This document shows, piece by piece, positions 34 to 6,007 of a DNA stretch of 6,007 nucleotides. Within the stretch, counting starts at the first letter, position 1. Each line of letters starts with the position of its first letter. Source of the stretch: Deltaproteobacteria bacterium RBG_13_61_14 (lineage in GTDB: Bacteria > RBG-13-61-14). A program made the translations under genes and the position numbers. The DNA lies in assembly GCA_001797815.1 (NCBI GenBank), contig MGQK01000060.1, positions 24,999 to 31,005 on the forward strand. Direction: 5' to 3'. The notes below the pieces were generated by a model, which saw only the letters and a program-made list of their open reading frames with translations, did no database searches and had not been told where the DNA came from.

Positions 34-119
34 GTCAAGCGCGGCCTTGGTGGCGCAGGTGCCCTCACCCGCGATTGAGTGCCAAATTCCGCCCTCACCA
101 CGACCCGTCTCCTGTCCGA

Positions 120-224
120 ATCGCCCTAACTACGACACCATTCTCCCTAATCCAGACGCCTTTCGCCCTCATAAAAACACGATTCGCACTCATAAAGACA
201 CGATTCGCACTTACTACGACATGG
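120..224. repeat. Degenerate 21-bp tandem repeat, five units
   Basis: Five adjacent 21-bp units begin at 120, 141, 162, 183 and 204. The two central units (162-182 and 183-203) differ at only two positions and follow TTCGCNCTCATAAANACACG plus A; the outer units are more diverged. A further related but out-of-phase copy lies at 87-107. There are no unique spacers between units, so this is a minisatellite-like array and not a CRISPR. Because the period is seven codons, several frames stay open through it on both strands, giving seven-residue peptide repeats that look coding but are probably not. Confidence 0.75.
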
Positions 225-565: not shown

Positions 566-630
566 AGGCAGGTCGGCAGAGTCTCTCCTGTCTGTCATCC
601 TTTGTCCTTCCCGTTTATAGCCTAATCAAC

Positions 631-658
631 GGAATTAAGTATGGTGTCCCCCGAATTT
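631..658 (+). repeat. Left terminal inverted repeat of the cassette
   Basis: The outer part is GGAATTAAGTATGGTGTCCC and the inner part CCGAATTT. It pairs with 1097-1124 with two mismatches. It runs into an iterated inner tail, GAATTTCG at 653-660 and again at 662-669, which includes the palindrome TTCGCGAA (657-664). The right arm lacks this tail, so the two ends are not fully symmetric. Confidence 0.8.
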
Positions 659-713
659 CGCGAATTTCGAATTTTCCTCTCAAAAATCAAGCACAGTCCC
701 AAAGCAATTGCAT

Positions 714-1094
714 TTATTTCTTTCGAGATTCCATCTTCAAGCCGATTAAGTAACCAATAGTTGCGCATAATATATGAAATGTCATAACAATTGCATTAAA
801 CTCATTTCTTGAAAGTTTCGACGGCTTCGGGCCTCTATAATATATTAAAAAGGCGTCAAATATGAAAAAAGCTAAAAATATCATAAAGCCTACTGTGATA
901 CCGAAAAGCGCACCTTTTATTCTTAGGGGACTCTGGGAATAGTCTTTATTCATTGCTTCTAGGCTAGTAGGATATTTTTTAATCAGACGAAAATAAAAAT
1001 ATCTAACAAAATAGATTACAACCAATATAACAAACCAATACGTTAAGAGTATATCTTTTATAGAAAAATCGGAAAAAGTATGCAATATTTTCAT
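714..1094 (-). CDS. Small three-helix membrane protein, function unknown
   Basis: I do not recognise this 126-residue protein. It has three strongly hydrophobic segments at about residues 14-36 (rich in Tyr, Phe and Val), 63-88 (GITVGFMIFLAFFIFDAF) and 103-122 (containing HILCATIGYLIGLKM), joined by short basic loops, and ends in ESRKK. It is probably an inner-membrane protein. The frame also stays open upstream to an ATG at 1118, but those eight extra codons lie mostly in the inverted repeat, so I choose the ATG at 1094. That start has no Shine-Dalgarno of its own. It overlaps the stop of the upstream 34-codon ORF as ATGA, so translational coupling is likely. Its AT-rich codon use is unlike the neighbouring genes and suggests foreign origin. 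The gene fills the inverted-repeat cassette. Confidence 0.65.
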   Translation of the reverse strand: MKILHTFSDFSIKDILLTYWFVILVVIYFVRYFYFRLIKKYPTSLEAMNKDYSQSPLRIKGALFGITVGFMIFLAFFIFDAFLIYYRGPKPSKLSRNEFNAIVMTFHILCATIGYLIGLKMESRKK

Positions 1095-1195
1095 GGTAAT
1101 TCGGGGGACACCATACATAATTCCGATATTTGGTCAATCGTGTCCAGCGGGAGGAAGGCTTCCGGTAAAGGAGAGGAAAGGGGTTTCCGGTTCAT
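1091..1195 (-). CDS. 34-codon leader ORF or 5' remnant of a disrupted gene
   Basis: The ORF starts at ATG 1195, behind GGAGG at 1204-1208 with an 8-nt spacer, a near-ideal ribosome-binding arrangement. It encodes 34 residues beginning MNRKPLSSPLPEAFLPLDTI. About the first 24 residues come from unique DNA and the next nine (ELCMVSPEL) from the inverted repeat. Its TGA overlaps the ATG of the membrane protein as ATGA. There are two readings. It may be a genuine leader peptide that carries ribosomes onto the Shine-Dalgarno-less membrane gene. Or it may be the start of a former gene cut off by arrival of the cassette. I find no continuation left of 631, which weakens simple insertion into a gene. 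The family is not recognised. Confidence 0.45.
   Translation of the reverse strand: MNRKPLSSPLPEAFLPLDTIDQISELCMVSPELP
1097..1124 (-). repeat. Right terminal inverted repeat of the cassette
   Basis: On the minus strand it reads GGAATTATGTATGGTGTCCC followed by CCGAATTA. It encodes nine in-frame codons near the end of the 34-codon ORF and, in another frame, the codons just upstream of the membrane protein start. Thus the repeat itself supplies the ORF's C-terminal residues, and the ATGA junction lies immediately inside the repeat. Confidence 0.8.
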
Positions 1196-1203
1196 GGGTT
1201 TGG

Positions 1204-1208
1204 CCTCC
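1204..1208 (-). promoter_or_regulatory. Shine-Dalgarno of the 34-codon ORF
   Basis: GGAGG on the minus strand, eight nucleotides before the ATG at 1195. It is the only strong ribosome-binding site ahead of the cassette gene, so it probably serves both ORFs through coupling. Confidence 0.6.
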
Positions 1209-1215
1209 GGGTCGC

Positions 1216-1289: not shown

Positions 1290-1595
1290 TCAGGCCGCAT
1301 ACAAGAGCTTCCGCGAATTTTGGATATTTTCCAGGAAATAACGGTTCTTGATCGCTGTCACCATGACCAGATCTATTGGCCGATGAAAAAGGGCCTCCAA
1401 GTCCTCCAGCAGGCCGAAATAGGCCTCGGCATATTCACCCGTCTTCAGGTTCTCGAACTCGACCAGAAAGTCCAGGTCGCTGGTCGAGGAATCGAAATCG
1501 CCCTTGACCGCAGAGCCGAAAAGCTCCAGCCGAAGGACGTGATGCGCCGCGCAAAGCCGCGCCAGCCTTTCTTGATATGGTTCCAGGATTACCAT
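1290..1595 (-). CDS. MNT-family minimal nucleotidyltransferase (MntA-like antitoxin), solitary
   Basis: This 101-residue protein has the minimal nucleotidyltransferase fold of the DNA polymerase beta superfamily. The signature FGSAVKGDFD..SDLDFLV is at residues 26-45, with catalytic acidic residues D40 and D42 and the probable third carboxylate D75 in RPIDLV. All key residues are present, so it looks active. In the HEPN/MNT toxin-antitoxin systems the MNT partner neutralises the HEPN RNase by AMPylation. Here no HEPN gene lies on either side: upstream is repeat DNA, and downstream, ten bases past the stop, is a new promoter. I choose ATG 1595. A TTG at 1604 would add three residues; neither start has a well-spaced Shine-Dalgarno (GGGG ends 3 nt before the ATG). 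It is likely an orphan antitoxin or the survivor of a broken module. Confidence 0.85.
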   Translation of the reverse strand: MVILEPYQERLARLCAAHHVLRLELFGSAVKGDFDSSTSDLDFLVEFENLKTGEYAEAYFGLLEDLEALFHRPIDLVMVTAIKNRYFLENIQNSRKLLYAA

Positions 1596-1607
1596 CTTCC
1601 CCAAGAC

Positions 1608-1843: not shown

Positions 1844-4174
1844 TTAGCTCAGCCCCCATCGCCTTCGCAAGAACCACTCCAGGCTGAGGGGGGCGAGGGC
1901 GCAGAGGAAGGTGAAGAGGTTGTCCCAGAGGGGGAAGTCGCGGGTGCCGGTGATTTTTTCGACCACCGGGTTTTTGAAGCTCAGCTCCGCGGTTCCCGCG
2001 TCCGCCCGCACGCTCTTGCCCCCGGTCTCCCGGGAAATCTCGGCCAGCCATTCCGGCCGTAGCGCCACGTCCTCAAACTCGCGCTTCTCTTCCGCCACCT
2101 CGAACAACACCTCGTCGTGCCCGAGCGACCGTCCGGCCAGCATGGCCGAAGCCCGCAGCCGATAACCTCCGACCGCGGCCGGCTTCAGGGTGAAATTGTA
2201 TTTGCCCTTGCCGGCCGGCGTCGGCTCCGGGATCGGCAACTCCGCCCCGGAGGGCGCTTCCGCCACTTCCAATTTCACCCGGGCCTGGTCCGTGGGCTGG
2301 TAACTTTCGTCCAGGACTTCCAGGGCCAGGCGCACCTCTTCGCCGGGCTGATAGCGGCCCTTTTCCCGGGTGAGCGAGAGGAGTTTCATCTCCGGGTCCT
2401 GCAAGAGCCAGCGGAGCGCGTTGTCCCAGAAGATCTGGTAGGGCTTGTTGCTCTTGCCCTGTCCGACGGCGGGCAGGTTCCAGTGCCAGGTCGAGTCGGT
2501 GGCCACCACCAGGCAGCGGCCGGCGCCGGCTTCGGTGATCGCGATCACCGGAAGATTGCCCCCGGGACCCTTGGCAAAGGGGTGCTCGCCCAGGACCAGC
2601 GCGCCCGGCTTGGCCCGGAGCGTCCGGTTGATGCCGGAGAGCGCGGGCAGGGATTTCCAGACCCGCTCGTTCTCGGCCGGGTCCTGGGCCACCCGGGTGA
2701 TGGGATGGGTGCGCCCGGCCGGGGTGAGATACATGACGTAATCGCCTTCCTCCAGGTTCGGCCAGTCCGGGCCCAGCTCCACCGGCAGGATCTCCTCCAG
2801 CGGCGCGTTGAAGGCGATGCCCCCGAGCAAGGCCCGGATCCCGCCGATCACCAGGACCGAGCCGCCGCGCACCTTCACGTAGTCGCGCAACAGCATCATA
2901 TACTGCGGCAGGAGGTATTCCATGCCGAAGAAGTTCTGGAAGATGACCAGATCGAAGTTGGGCAGCTCCTCGGTGAACAGCTTCTGGGTGGGGAACGGGA
3001 TCAGGGCCAGCTCGTCCTGCGGGGCCATGGGATCGTCCTGGTATTCGCGGAGGATGTAGAAGCTGACCAGGTCCACCGAAGGGTTGCGCTTCATGGCCAT
3101 GCGCAGGAAGCGCTCGTCCCAGGAGGGGTTGCCCACGATGTAGAGCACCCGCACCTTGTCCCGGAGCACGCGCAGCGGGAAGCTCAGGCGGTTGTTGAGA
3201 TCGGAGGCCTCGCCGGCAAAGACCGGGACCTCCAGGGTGTAAAGGAACTCGCCCACCTTGCGGGGGGTGAAGTCCAACTTGACCTCGGTGGTCTCCTGCT
3301 TCAAGTCCAGCTCCACCTCGCGGCTGACCAGGACCTGGTCTCCGCTCTTCAGGGTGAGGGCCACCCGGTCGGCGAAACGGCCGGCGCTCTTGAGCTTGAC
3401 CTTGATCAGGAAGGGGTTGTGGACAAAGCCGTATTCATCGTGGACGGCCTCGGTGATGGCGAGGTCGTGGAGCGCCTCGGGTTTGCCGCAGAGCACGGTG
3501 TGGACCGGGGCCGGGAATTCGGCCAGGTCGGGGATGCGGAGCGCGAGACCGGCCTGGTCCTCGCGGGCCTTGAGGATCTGGCGGAGCCGGCCGTTGTCCG
3601 CGCCGTCGCTGAGGATGAGCATGCCGGCGACCGGCTGGGAGCCGAGTTCCTTGAGCGCGTCGGTCATGGACTCGAGGATATGCGTGCCCGCGCCGGTGGC
3701 GGCGAGCGAAGCTTCCGGTCGGCCGGGCAGGAGCCGGGGCGATTCGGCAAAGGCAAAATAACGGACCTGGAACTTTTCTTCCAGGTCGTCAAAGTAGCGC
3801 CGGTTGCCATCCACGAACTTGAGCGCCTGGGCCAGGCGGGAGGGACCCGAGTTGCTCTCGCCCAGGTTCATGCTTTCGGAGGTATCCAGCAGCACGGCCA
3901 GGGAATTGGTCAGGCGCACCACCTTGGCCAGGCGGAGGCTGGGCTGGAAAAGCGCGAAGCAGATAACCGCGGCTCCGAGCAAGCGCAGGGAAAGGAGCAG
4001 CGCGGCCTTGCCCCCGCGGGCGCGGCGGACCGCGGGCCAGAGGAAAAGGACGAGGGCGATGAGCAGGATCCCGGCGGCCCACCAGGTGGCGGAGGACTCG
4101 GCGCCGGCCCAGTGGATCTGCCAGCGGTCAAAGCCGGTGGTGTCCACCCCCAGCCGCTCAAGGAGCTGCATCAT
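1844..4174 (-). CDS. Membrane protein with VWA domain and GATase-like domain
   Basis: This 776-residue protein has two N-terminal transmembrane helices (about 31-47 and 57-80). A von Willebrand A domain (about 91-230) follows with an intact metal site: DTSES at 97-101, T164 in GAGTH and D190 in LSDGAD. Next come a beta-sandwich-like stretch (240-335) and a class I glutamine-amidotransferase-like domain (about 340-590: VLYIVGNPSWDERFLR, LVIGG, ATDSTWHWN). I see no nucleophilic cysteine where a real amidotransferase would have one, so it is probably a binding or scaffolding domain. A second sandwich region (600-695) leads to a final membrane helix ending in EWFLRRRWGL, typical of this family. 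ATG 4174 overlaps the upstream stop as ATGA and is preceded by AGGG with a 7-nt gap. It is the last gene of the operon and probably works with MoxR-type ATPases in a cell-envelope complex. The exact substrate is unknown. Confidence 0.85.
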   Translation of the reverse strand: MMQLLERLGVDTTGFDRWQIHWAGAESSATWWAAGILLIALVLFLWPAVRRARGGKAALLLSLRLLGAAVICFALFQPSLRLAKVVRLTNSLAVLLDTSESMNLGESNSGPSRLAQALKFVDGNRRYFDDLEEKFQVRYFAFAESPRLLPGRPEASLAATGAGTHILESMTDALKELGSQPVAGMLILSDGADNGRLRQILKAREDQAGLALRIPDLAEFPAPVHTVLCGKPEALHDLAITEAVHDEYGFVHNPFLIKVKLKSAGRFADRVALTLKSGDQVLVSREVELDLKQETTEVKLDFTPRKVGEFLYTLEVPVFAGEASDLNNRLSFPLRVLRDKVRVLYIVGNPSWDERFLRMAMKRNPSVDLVSFYILREYQDDPMAPQDELALIPFPTQKLFTEELPNFDLVIFQNFFGMEYLLPQYMMLLRDYVKVRGGSVLVIGGIRALLGGIAFNAPLEEILPVELGPDWPNLEEGDYVMYLTPAGRTHPITRVAQDPAENERVWKSLPALSGINRTLRAKPGALVLGEHPFAKGPGGNLPVIAITEAGAGRCLVVATDSTWHWNLPAVGQGKSNKPYQIFWDNALRWLLQDPEMKLLSLTREKGRYQPGEEVRLALEVLDESYQPTDQARVKLEVAEAPSGAELPIPEPTPAGKGKYNFTLKPAAVGGYRLRASAMLAGRSLGHDEVLFEVAEEKREFEDVALRPEWLAEISRETGGKSVRADAGTAELSFKNPVVEKITGTRDFPLWDNLFTFLCALAPLSLEWFLRRRWGLS

Positions 4175-4980
4175 GGCCAGACCCTGCGCCGCCGGCGCTC
4201 TTCGATGAAGGGCACGTGGATCAGGTCTTTCTTGTAGTCCACGGTCAGGGCGTAAAACACGATGTTGATACCCAGGCGGATGGCCATTTCCCGCTGGCGC
4301 TCGCCGCCGGGCTCCACCTGGTGCATGAACCGGCCGAAGCTGTCCCTGGCCCAGGCCCCGGCCAGGTCGTTCGGGGAATAGATGAGGACGGTGCGGCCTT
4401 CGCGGTCCACCCCGGAGAGGTAGGGCCGGCCGGCCTTGCGGCCGACCACCCGGTCAATCAGGTAATAGGTCTGGAACACGGTATGGTCTTGCGGGAGCTT
4501 GGCCAGGATCTCGCCGGGGAAAAGCCGGCTGAACTCCCGCTGGAAAGACTGGTCGAAGCCGGACCCGGAAGCGCCGAGCGCGTCGTCCACCAGGAGGAAC
4601 CCGCCGTATTCCAGGAACTGCCGGAGCCGGTCCACTTCCGGCTCGGACCAGGGCGCGAACTCCCGGGCGCCGGAGAGGTAGAGGAACGGAGAGTAGAAGA
4701 GGCGGTCGCTCCCGAGCGCGATGTCCTTCCGCTCCGGCCCGGCCGGCACGCTGGTGCGCTGGACCAGGATCTGCAAAAAGCTTTCGGCCGCGGTGGGATG
4801 GGGAAGCCACTGGTTGCCCTGGCCGTAAATGAGCTGGGTAAAGAAAAAGCTGGGCCGCTCCGGGATCATGAACATCGAGCCCGGCCGGCGGACCTGGCTC
4901 CGGGCATAAGCGGGCAGACCCAGGCCCGAAGCCAGCAAGAGTTTCAGCAGCTCCCGCCGATCGAGCCGGAAAGGCGGCAT
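4171..4980 (-). CDS. DUF4159 protein with Tat-like signal peptide
   Basis: This 269-residue protein opens with a twin-arginine-like signal: RRELLKLLLASGLGLPAYA at residues 8-26, with likely cleavage after YA. It is therefore probably exported. The rest matches what I know of DUF4159 proteins: FTQLIYG near 47, an aromatic stretch around 94-101, GGFLLVDD at 126-133, DHTVFQ at 165-170, SPNDLAGAW at 202-210 and a closing RLGINIVFYALT..YKKDL segment. DUF4159 has a GATase-like fold but no assigned reaction. The ATG at 4980 lies two bases after the upstream stop and has GGAAGGG (4987-4993) six bases before it. The stop overlaps the next gene as ATGA. It is found almost always between BatA-like and VWA/GATase-like genes, as here, so it probably belongs to the same envelope complex. 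Confidence 0.85.
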   Translation of the reverse strand: MPPFRLDRRELLKLLLASGLGLPAYARSQVRRPGSMFMIPERPSFFFTQLIYGQGNQWLPHPTAAESFLQILVQRTSVPAGPERKDIALGSDRLFYSPFLYLSGAREFAPWSEPEVDRLRQFLEYGGFLLVDDALGASGSGFDQSFQREFSRLFPGEILAKLPQDHTVFQTYYLIDRVVGRKAGRPYLSGVDREGRTVLIYSPNDLAGAWARDSFGRFMHQVEPGGERQREMAIRLGINIVFYALTVDYKKDLIHVPFIEERRRRRVWP

Positions 4981-4982
4981 GC

Positions 4983-6007
4983 TCAGCCCTTCCTCAACAA
5001 GACCAGCTCCAGCGCCGCGGCCAGCGCCAGGATGAAGAGCAGGGTCGAGGCCAACTCGCTCCGCCGCACCTGGTCCCCGGCCGCCCGGATAAAGCCGGCC
5101 TCTCCGGCCGCGACCTCGACCCCGACCGCCGGCACCAGGGCTTTAAGCTCGCTTTCGCTGATCTTGGCCAGGTTCGATTCCCGCAAATCGAGGTTGATCA
5201 CCAACACCTGGTCGGCCTCGGCCGGAGAGAAGACCGAGGGCGTGCCCTCGGGCAGGCGGTCGGCCCAGCGCAGGTAATAGAAGCCGGGCCGGTCGGTGTC
5301 GGCCAGGCGCACCGTGTTCAAGCCCCGGTCCTGGACCGCGGGCAGCGCCTCGGCCCGGGCTAAAGGATTCACGACCACGGCGCCGGCCTTGCCCGGCGGA
5401 CAGGGGATCCGGATCTCCTGGCCGGCGGTCATGCCGCCGGGGTCGCCGCCGAACAGCGCCCCGGCCAGGTATTGCACGGTCTGCTGGAACAGGGGCAGGA
5501 AGGTGGGCCGGATGCAGAGGTCGTTCCAGGCCCGGTCCGCGCTGGAAGCAAACAGGATCACCTTGCCCCGGCCGAATTCCTTTTCCACCAGGAGGGGCGA
5601 GCCGTCGGTGAGGCGCAGGATCACCCGGCTCTGCGGCACCACCTCCTGCTGAAGCACGAAATAGGTGAAGAAGTTGGCCAGGGCCAGGTCGCCCTCGTCC
5701 GGTCCGCGGAAGACGCCGAGGATGGGATGGCGCTCGCCGGGAGCGGCTCCGGGCGCGAACAGGCTGTCGAGGTGCATGACCCGGATCTCGCCCTTGTTGG
5801 GGACACCATTCAGATAGTGTCCCCCATAGGGAGAGGCGATGCCCCGCAGCTCGCGCGGCAAGAGGTCGCCGAAGAGGCGGTCGTAAAAGTCGGCGTTGAC
5901 CTGGTCGCCCAGGGTGAAGAGCAAGCCGCCGCCCTCGCGGACAAAGCGCTTGATCTCGGCCACGGTTTTTTCCGGCAGCTTCTCCACGTTGGCCAGGACC
6001 AGCACCT
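4983..6007 (-). CDS. BatA-like membrane protein, C-terminal part (5' end outside window)
   Basis: About 340 residues are visible; the frame is open at the window edge and the first visible GTG (6003-6005) is most likely internal. Residues 1-185 form the GATase-like part: VLVLANVEKL, FVREGGGLLFTLGD at 21-34, SPLLVEKEFGRGKVILFASS at 136-155 and DRAWNDLCIRPTFLPLFQQT at 157-176, all characteristic of the large BatA-type proteins. Residues 190-260 look like a beta-sandwich. A C-terminal helix (about 317-337) ends in LELVLLRKG. The missing upstream part should hold the two N-terminal BatA transmembrane helices and probably a VWA domain. BatA-type proteins work with MoxR ATPases and DUF58 proteins, expected further upstream. 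An 8-bp palindrome containing the cassette repeat core lies in frame at residues 61-69 (GGHYLNGVP). Confidence 0.85.
   Translation of the reverse strand, partial: VLVLANVEKLPEKTVAEIKRFVREGGGLLFTLGDQVNADFYDRLFGDLLPRELRGIASPYGGHYLNGVPNKGEIRVMHLDSLFAPGAAPGERHPILGVFRGPDEGDLALANFFTYFVLQQEVVPQSRVILRLTDGSPLLVEKEFGRGKVILFASSADRAWNDLCIRPTFLPLFQQTVQYLAGALFGGDPGGMTAGQEIRIPCPPGKAGAVVVNPLARAEALPAVQDRGLNTVRLADTDRPGFYYLRWADRLPEGTPSVFSPAEADQVLVINLDLRESNLAKISESELKALVPAVGVEVAAGEAGFIRAAGDQVRRSELASTLLFILALAAALELVLLRKG
5799..5824 (-). repeat. Palindromic copy of the cassette repeat core inside the BatA-like gene
   Basis: GGGGACAC at 5799-5806 and GTGTCCCC at 5817-5824 are perfect inverted arms around a 10-bp centre. 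The minus strand reads ATGGTGTCCCC at 5799-5809, the same 11-mer found in both terminal repeats of the cassette (from 641 on the plus strand, and within 1097-1124 on the minus strand). The reading frame stays open and encodes GGHYLNGVP, so if it is an insertion it was accepted in frame. Confidence 0.55.

What the first reader, a model, noticed from the sequence alone, without database searches (positions are those of the whole stretch)
631..1124. A 28-bp inverted repeat bounds an AT-rich single-gene cassette with no transposase
The two arms match at 26 of 28 positions and enclose a small membrane-protein gene whose composition is unlike everything around it. There is no recombinase inside, so it looks like a non-autonomous element or cargo caught between two REP-like insertions. 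I recall GGTGTCCCC-type repeats near Y1/REP-associated tyrosine transposase (RAYT) genes in several uncultured bacteria, but cannot verify it here. A cargo-bearing REP pair would be an unusual arrangement.
Basis: partly seen in the sequence, partly recalled or inferred. Interest (0 to 1): 0.8.

Follow-up and report, generated by a model that had tools for sequence, protein, structure and literature searches.

The report
Foreign gene between two transposase-linked repeats
A small foreign-looking gene sits between two copies of a short repeat that elsewhere marks the ends of a REP-type transposase gene, and the same genome holds many other single defence-like or unknown genes behind the same repeat and shared promoter sequences, as if it keeps ready-made slots for swapping accessory genes.

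Summary
In detail: 631-658 and 1097-1124 match inverted at 26/28 and enclose an AT-rich (about 31% GC) one-gene segment in a roughly 60% GC genome. The arm core GAATTAAGTATGGTGTCCCC occurs 68 times here (0 in the control) and in many phyla, where, as once here, it caps both ends of a 220-aa RAYT (Y1/HUH transposase) gene. Facing arm pairs 0.2-2 kb apart number 8 against 0.4 expected. DNA inside solitary arms is AT-rich in 30/51 cases (4% of random windows) and holds unrelated defence-like, toxin-antitoxin or orphan genes. Homology between copies lies only outside the arms and includes sigma-70 promoters and a leader ORF reading into the cargo. Three two-slot loci share a collinear scaffold (promoter-leader-arm, gene, spacer-arm, gene, 3' module) with unrelated genes in the slots. 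A Planctomycetes genome without a RAYT hit has only two arms, a facing pair around an AT-rich cassette. Best reading: RAYT-linked arms delimit exchangeable accessory-gene cassettes behind resident expression modules. Movement, the enzyme and an empty site were not shown; no integron integrase reached the curated cut-off.

The parts
631..658 (+). left arm (A tip), GGAATTAAGTATGGTGTCCCCCGAATTT, pointing into the cassette
   Evidence: exact 20-mer among 26 in the genome
1097..1124 (-). right arm (A tip), one core mismatch, pointing into the cassette and towards the gene start
714..1094 (-). cargo gene, AT-rich, about 126 aa hydrophobic protein, orphan (alternative start at 1118 lies inside the arm)
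   Evidence: no relative found in plasmids or viral contigs
1091..1195 (-). leader ORF MNRKPLSSPLPEAFLPLDTIDQISELCMVSPELP that reads through the right arm; its stop overlaps the cargo start as ATGA; GGAGG at about 1204-1208
   Evidence: translation not tested
1094..1213 (-). X module next to the right arm, 83-90% identical to the 5' modules of L020 (two loci) and L070
1250..1279 (-). promoter TTGACA-18-TAGAAT (11/12) reading into leader, arm and cargo; counterpart of the repeated X promoter
586..630 (+). W module outside the left arm, about 87% identical to the flank of the 3' arm of L073
276..457 (.). distal 3' module, about 86% identical to the DNA downstream of the L067 cassette

Best explanation
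The segment is an exchangeable accessory-gene cassette: one AT-rich foreign gene delimited by two facing copies of a RAYT-linked terminal repeat (A tip), lying behind a resident promoter-leader-A-tip module that should drive its transcription and may couple its translation. The genome holds many such slots. Shown: the repeat caps RAYT genes here and elsewhere; solitary arms mark the 5' edge of AT-rich single genes; the outer modules are shared while the genes differ; three two-slot scaffolds are collinear with unrelated genes in the slots. Inferred: cassettes enter and leave at the arms, probably by single-strand cleavage and joining by a Y1/HUH RAYT acting in trans, and are kept because the resident module expresses the newcomer.
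For: 68 arm copies, 0 in control. 8 facing pairs at 0.2-2 kb against 0.44 expected (one arm of one pair has 4 mismatches). AT-rich DNA inside 30/51 solitary arms against 6/51 outside and 4% of random windows. Homology abuts the arm on the outer side in about 20/56 copies and on the inner side in none apart from one locus fetched twice; 27/99 against 2/98 in other phyla. Promoters in sense 13/50 against 2/50 antisense. Collinear scaffolds with swapped genes (controls). RAYT genes capped by the same arms, own RAYT related to TnpA_REP 4er8. G060 has only two arms, a facing pair around an AT-rich cassette, and no RAYT hit; G061 has a facing pair hugging one gene.
Against: No empty site, no excised or circular form, no enzyme activity was seen. 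In most other genomes the arm forms doublets or RAYT caps without AT-rich cargo. The part shared between copies lies outside the arms, which is also what simple insertion of elements ending in the arm would give. The gene slots of the three scaffolds could also have been exchanged by ordinary homologous recombination. The platform set compared was chosen by me.
Confidence: 0.45

Rival explanations
1. Independent insertions beside pre-existing genes. Elements that end in the A tip, some carrying promoters (mobile promoters), inserted next to horizontally acquired AT-rich genes, and those facing or activating the gene were kept. The gene never moved with the arms.
For: Homology lies on the outer side of the arms here and in other phyla, as expected if that side is the element interior; X and Y modules carry promoters in sense; REP-type elements are common between genes (PMC2817692, PMC3116915).
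Against: The same modules in the same order around unrelated genes at three loci would need repeated independent insertions in one order; G060 has no other arms in the draft to supply two independent insertions.
Confidence: 0.3
2. Homologous recombination between repeated intergenic modules swaps the genes between them; the arm is only the most conserved piece of the modules and no RAYT is involved.
For: Modules of 50-270 bp at 83-96% identity exist in several copies; the C75 locus shows a toxin-antitoxin-like operon between direct repeats of about 126 bp.
Against: The homology ends at the arm and not at variable points; facing pairs in G060 and G061 lie in genomes with few or no other copies to recombine with.
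Confidence: 0.2
3. An integron: the outer module is attI with its promoter and the spacer between genes is attC.
For: Promoter, leader ORF, then promoterless single genes with recurrent spacers; cargo rich in defence and toxin-antitoxin genes.
Against: No integron integrase over the curated cut-off (best 80 bits against 265); spacers and leaders fold no better than shuffles; slots are scattered over the genome.
Confidence: 0.02
4. Chance proximity: the arms are ordinary extragenic repeats and the AT-rich gene is an unrelated acquired gene that happens to lie between two of them.
For: Repeats of this class are numerous and extragenic in many genomes (PMC2817692, PMC3116915).
Against: 8 facing pairs against 0.44 expected, AT-rich polarity 30 against 6, shared promoter modules ending in the arm.
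Confidence: 0.03

Closest known systems
REP / REPIN elements with RAYT (TnpA_REP, IS200/IS605-like Y1 HUH transposases)
   Same: The arm caps RAYT genes in inverted orientation; inverted doublets form strong hairpins; tens of extragenic copies in the genome.
   Different: A single arm is not palindromic and lacks a visible GTAG/GGAG head; many solitary arms are exact copies (21 of 55) instead of decayed remnants; facing solitary arms enclose foreign genes.
Integron gene cassettes (attI with Pc, attC)
   Same: Resident promoter and leader ORF followed by exchangeable single genes, often defence or toxin-antitoxin; arrays of two slots.
   Different: No IntI over cut-off, no attC-like folding, slots dispersed over the chromosome.
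Mobile insertion cassettes (MICs; passenger gene between the inverted repeats of an absent transposase)
   Same: Passenger gene between inverted repeats without a transposase; a matching transposase gene elsewhere in the genome.
   Different: MICs as I know them use DDE-type IS ends and make target duplications; here the ends belong to an HUH RAYT, the arms point inwards to the cargo, and the shared DNA lies outside them.
Mobile promoters
   Same: Repeated promoter-leader modules upstream of unrelated genes.
   Different: Module order is conserved over two slots and a 3' module, and the modules end in a RAYT-type tip.

Membership tests
REP/RAYT system | RAYT gene delimited by two inverted copies of the repeat | tested here: met
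   L127, L081, L084, L139, own L072 and L248; own RAYT matches TnpA_REP 4er8
REP/RAYT system | high number of extragenic copies | tested here: met
   68 copies with up to 3 mismatches, 0 in control; mostly between genes by inspection
REP/RAYT system | each repeat is itself an imperfect palindrome with a GTAG/GGAG-type head | tested here: not met
   arm sequences; only two arms together form a hairpin
REP/RAYT system | cleavage or mobilisation of the repeat by the RAYT | not testable with these tools
   needs biochemistry
REPIN | two inverted repeats with a short spacer forming a hairpin | tested here: met
   met by the tight outward doublets elsewhere in the genome (L057, L031), not by the pair in this window, which faces inwards over 438 nt
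Integron | IntI tyrosine recombinase | tested here: not met
   TIGR02249 best 80 bits, cut-off 265; draft 95% complete
Integron | attC sites that fold as single-strand hairpins | tested here: not met
   spacers and leaders z between -1.4 and +2.2
Mobile insertion cassette | inverted repeats of a known transposase enclosing passenger genes only | tested here: met
   arms are those of the RAYT, interior has no recombinase
Mobile insertion cassette | evidence of transposition as a unit (target duplication, empty site) | tested here: inconclusive
   no relative close enough; only one genome held in the family of G060; same-order genomes lack arms

The most novel reading that the evidence does not exclude
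A dispersed, integrase-free gene-cassette system: RAYT-type (Y1 HUH) ends act as fixed junctions at which single accessory genes are exchanged behind promoter-leader platforms, and cassettes carrying their own arms travel between phyla.
Probability: 0.28. Interest if true: 0.88.

Novelty: new variant of a known kind. Interest (0 to 1): 0.66.

Why it matters
RAYTs and REPs are widespread, and as far as I know no role in carrying genes between genomes has been established for them. If their ends delimit exchangeable accessory genes behind ready promoters, this would be a second cassette logic beside integrons, with a cargo that includes defence and toxin-antitoxin genes, and it could be searched for with one 20-nt sequence in many phyla.

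Tried and rejected
Integron hypothesis. Rfam: no known RNA in 400-1700, one sub-threshold U7 hit taken as chance. Relatives of the cargo in plasmids and viral contigs: none. The arm in viral contigs: none. Relatives of the same order: no arms at up to 1 mismatch, and the GGTGTCCCC sites fetched from G001 lack the rest of the arm. Papers holding the arm sequence: two unrelated hits. Empty-site test through the family of G060: only one genome held. A second motif B (GGGGTCAGAGCTT) downstream of cargo recurs but is looser (31 matches at up to 1 mismatch) and is kept as a side observation. The long RAYTs (about 320 aa) were checked for common ends and gave no clean boundary. The 4-nt overlap of leader stop and cargo start (4 own loci) is suggestive only; I estimate 1-2 expected by chance. 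A link of arms with AT-rich cargo as a general rule in other phyla was tested and not found.

Full report
1. Observation. The arms 631-658 and 1097-1124 agree at 26 of 28 positions in inverted orientation; the pair extends to 41 nt at 83%. The 438 nt between are about 30-34% GC and hold one plausible gene on the minus strand, a hydrophobic protein without a Pfam family above cut-off. There is no recombinase. Coordinates and description are right.

2. The arm in this genome. The window is contig C60:24999-31005 of a 4.74-Mb draft in 132 contigs. GGTGTCCCC is in excess (93 against 10 in the control). GAATTAAGTATGGTGTCCCC occurs 26 times exactly and 68 times with up to 3 mismatches, against 0 in the control. 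Eight facing pairs lie 0.2-2 kb apart where 0.44 are expected under random placement, nine pairs are direct, and one is outward at that distance (one arm, in C53, was added by hand with 4 mismatches). Tight outward pairs (9-29 nt) form strong hairpins.

3. The arm as the end of a RAYT. RAYT genes of about 214-233 codons with outward arms close to both ends were found in a Nitrospirae (L127), Desulfatitalea (L081), Desulfotignum (L084), a Phycisphaerales (L139) and this genome (C46, L072), and in a Geobacteraceae (L248). A Dehalococcoidia locus (L138) instead has arms facing its RAYT. The own RAYT matches E. coli TnpA_REP 4er8 (E 0.002). The exact 20-mer is present in more than 100 stretches from Proteobacteria, Nitrospirae, Planctomycetes, Elusimicrobia, Dehalococcoidia, Armatimonadota and others, and in no viral contig. 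RAYT genes capped by inverted REPs are the defining organisation of that family (PMC2817692); inverted REP doublets are called REPINs, and single REPs are held to be decayed remnants (PMC3116915). Here 21 of 55 solitary arms are exact and they are about as alike as doublet arms. A single arm is not palindromic and no GTAG/GGAG head was seen, so I call it REP-like.

4. What lies inside. For 51 solitary arms the mean GC of the 400 nt downstream is 0.44 against 0.53 upstream; 30 have AT-rich DNA downstream and 6 upstream, against 4% of random windows. A gene start often follows about 30 nt after the arm in the same direction. The cargo tested is mostly unrelated from locus to locus: an OLD-like AAA ATPase, a TIR (CAP12) protein, SIR2, a GmrSD/NsnA-like protein, an ADP-ribosylglycohydrolase with a DAC domain, a methyltransferase, and many orphans; a HicA toxin; at C75 an apparent MazEF-like pair (read, not domain-tested). 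Family names do not prove function.

5. What is shared. Homology between solitary copies touches the arm on the outer side in about 20 of 56 and on the inner side in none, apart from one locus fetched twice; in other phyla the counts are 27 of 99 and 2 of 98. The shared outer modules fall into families (X, Xr, S, Y, T, V, W, U), most copies of which end in the arm. X and Y hold strong sigma-70-like promoters reading into the cargo; over all solitary arms such promoters are found 13 times in sense and 2 times in antisense. The X promoter has six copies in the genome: five have an arm within 300 nt downstream and the sixth (C75) a truncated one. The window has its own version, TTGACA-18-TAGAAT at 1279-1250. 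The X leader carries a Shine-Dalgarno and an ORF through the arm; in the window its stop overlaps the cargo start as ATGA. Coupling was not tested.

6. Scaffolds with swapped genes. At C65 (two copies) and C44 the order promoter, leader, arm, gene 1, spacer with arm, gene 2, 3' module is conserved, with 79-100% identity in the shared blocks and no gene homology. Chains of at least two collinear blocks occur in 14 of 66 platform pairs, in 0 of 900 random pairs, and in 1 of 153 pairs of AT-rich islands without solitary arms. I chose the platform set, so this is descriptive. The window shares its 5' module with these loci and its distal 3' module with L067.

7. Beyond this genome. A Planctomycetes draft (G060, 2.6 Mb) has only two arms at up to 2 mismatches, a facing pair around an AT-rich two-gene cassette, and no RAYT hit. 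A Nitrospirae draft (G061), also without a RAYT hit, has a facing pair hugging a single gene (21 nt before the ATG, 10 nt after the stop). These fit arms travelling with cargo, with the caution that both are drafts. In most other genomes the arms are doublets or RAYT caps without AT-rich cargo, so the cassette use is local or secondary.

8. Mechanism. I favour cassettes exchanged at the arms, probably by a Y1/HUH RAYT in trans, behind resident expression modules. The architecture is shown; the enzyme, the movement and any empty site are inferred. The main rivals are promoter-bearing elements inserted beside acquired genes, and plain homologous recombination between the repeated modules.

Noticed in passing
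window 5798-5825; also L020 near 4309-4359, L023 6617-6642, L027 8941-9182, L062 10953-10978, L069 8354-8379, L071 9404-9429: A short perfect or near-perfect hairpin of the same tip (GGGGACACCATTCNGATGGTGTCCCC) lies inside coding sequence; in the window it is read in frame in ORF 4983-6005, and L027 has three copies close together.
   Followed up: partly
L046 9992, L020 8052, L070 2149 and 3154, L067 5189, L205 13928, L221 7643 and others: A second tip-like motif (GATCGGGGTCAGAGCTTCACATAAAACTTAA) often follows AT-rich genes in sense direction and also forms hairpin doublets (L029 6494, L202 3855); it may be the end of another RAYT family.
   Followed up: partly
window 117-221: Diverged 21-nt repeats (CGATTCGCACTNATAAAGACA), related copies of which recur in other intergenic regions of the genome.
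   Followed up: no
L083 2994 and 7797, L155 1701 and 2568 (Geobacteraceae): A GC-rich terminator-like hairpin (AAAGGCGGCC-GATT-GGCCGCCTTTT) stands directly before the arm at all four sites in two genomes.
   Followed up: no
own genome, L002-L008 and L011-L014, L016: About a dozen long RAYT-like genes (about 320 aa) of diverse sequence besides the 220-aa type, a rich set for one genome.
   Followed up: partly
window 1290-1604: A small MNT-type nucleotidyltransferase gene (NTP_transf_2) ends just before the promoter of the cassette; such genes are often antitoxins, but no partner was sought.
   Followed up: no
L226 (C75), about 2240-3330, minus strand: Two direct repeats of about 126 bp, each ending in a full or truncated arm, flank an apparent MazEF-like operon behind the X promoter.
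   Followed up: partly
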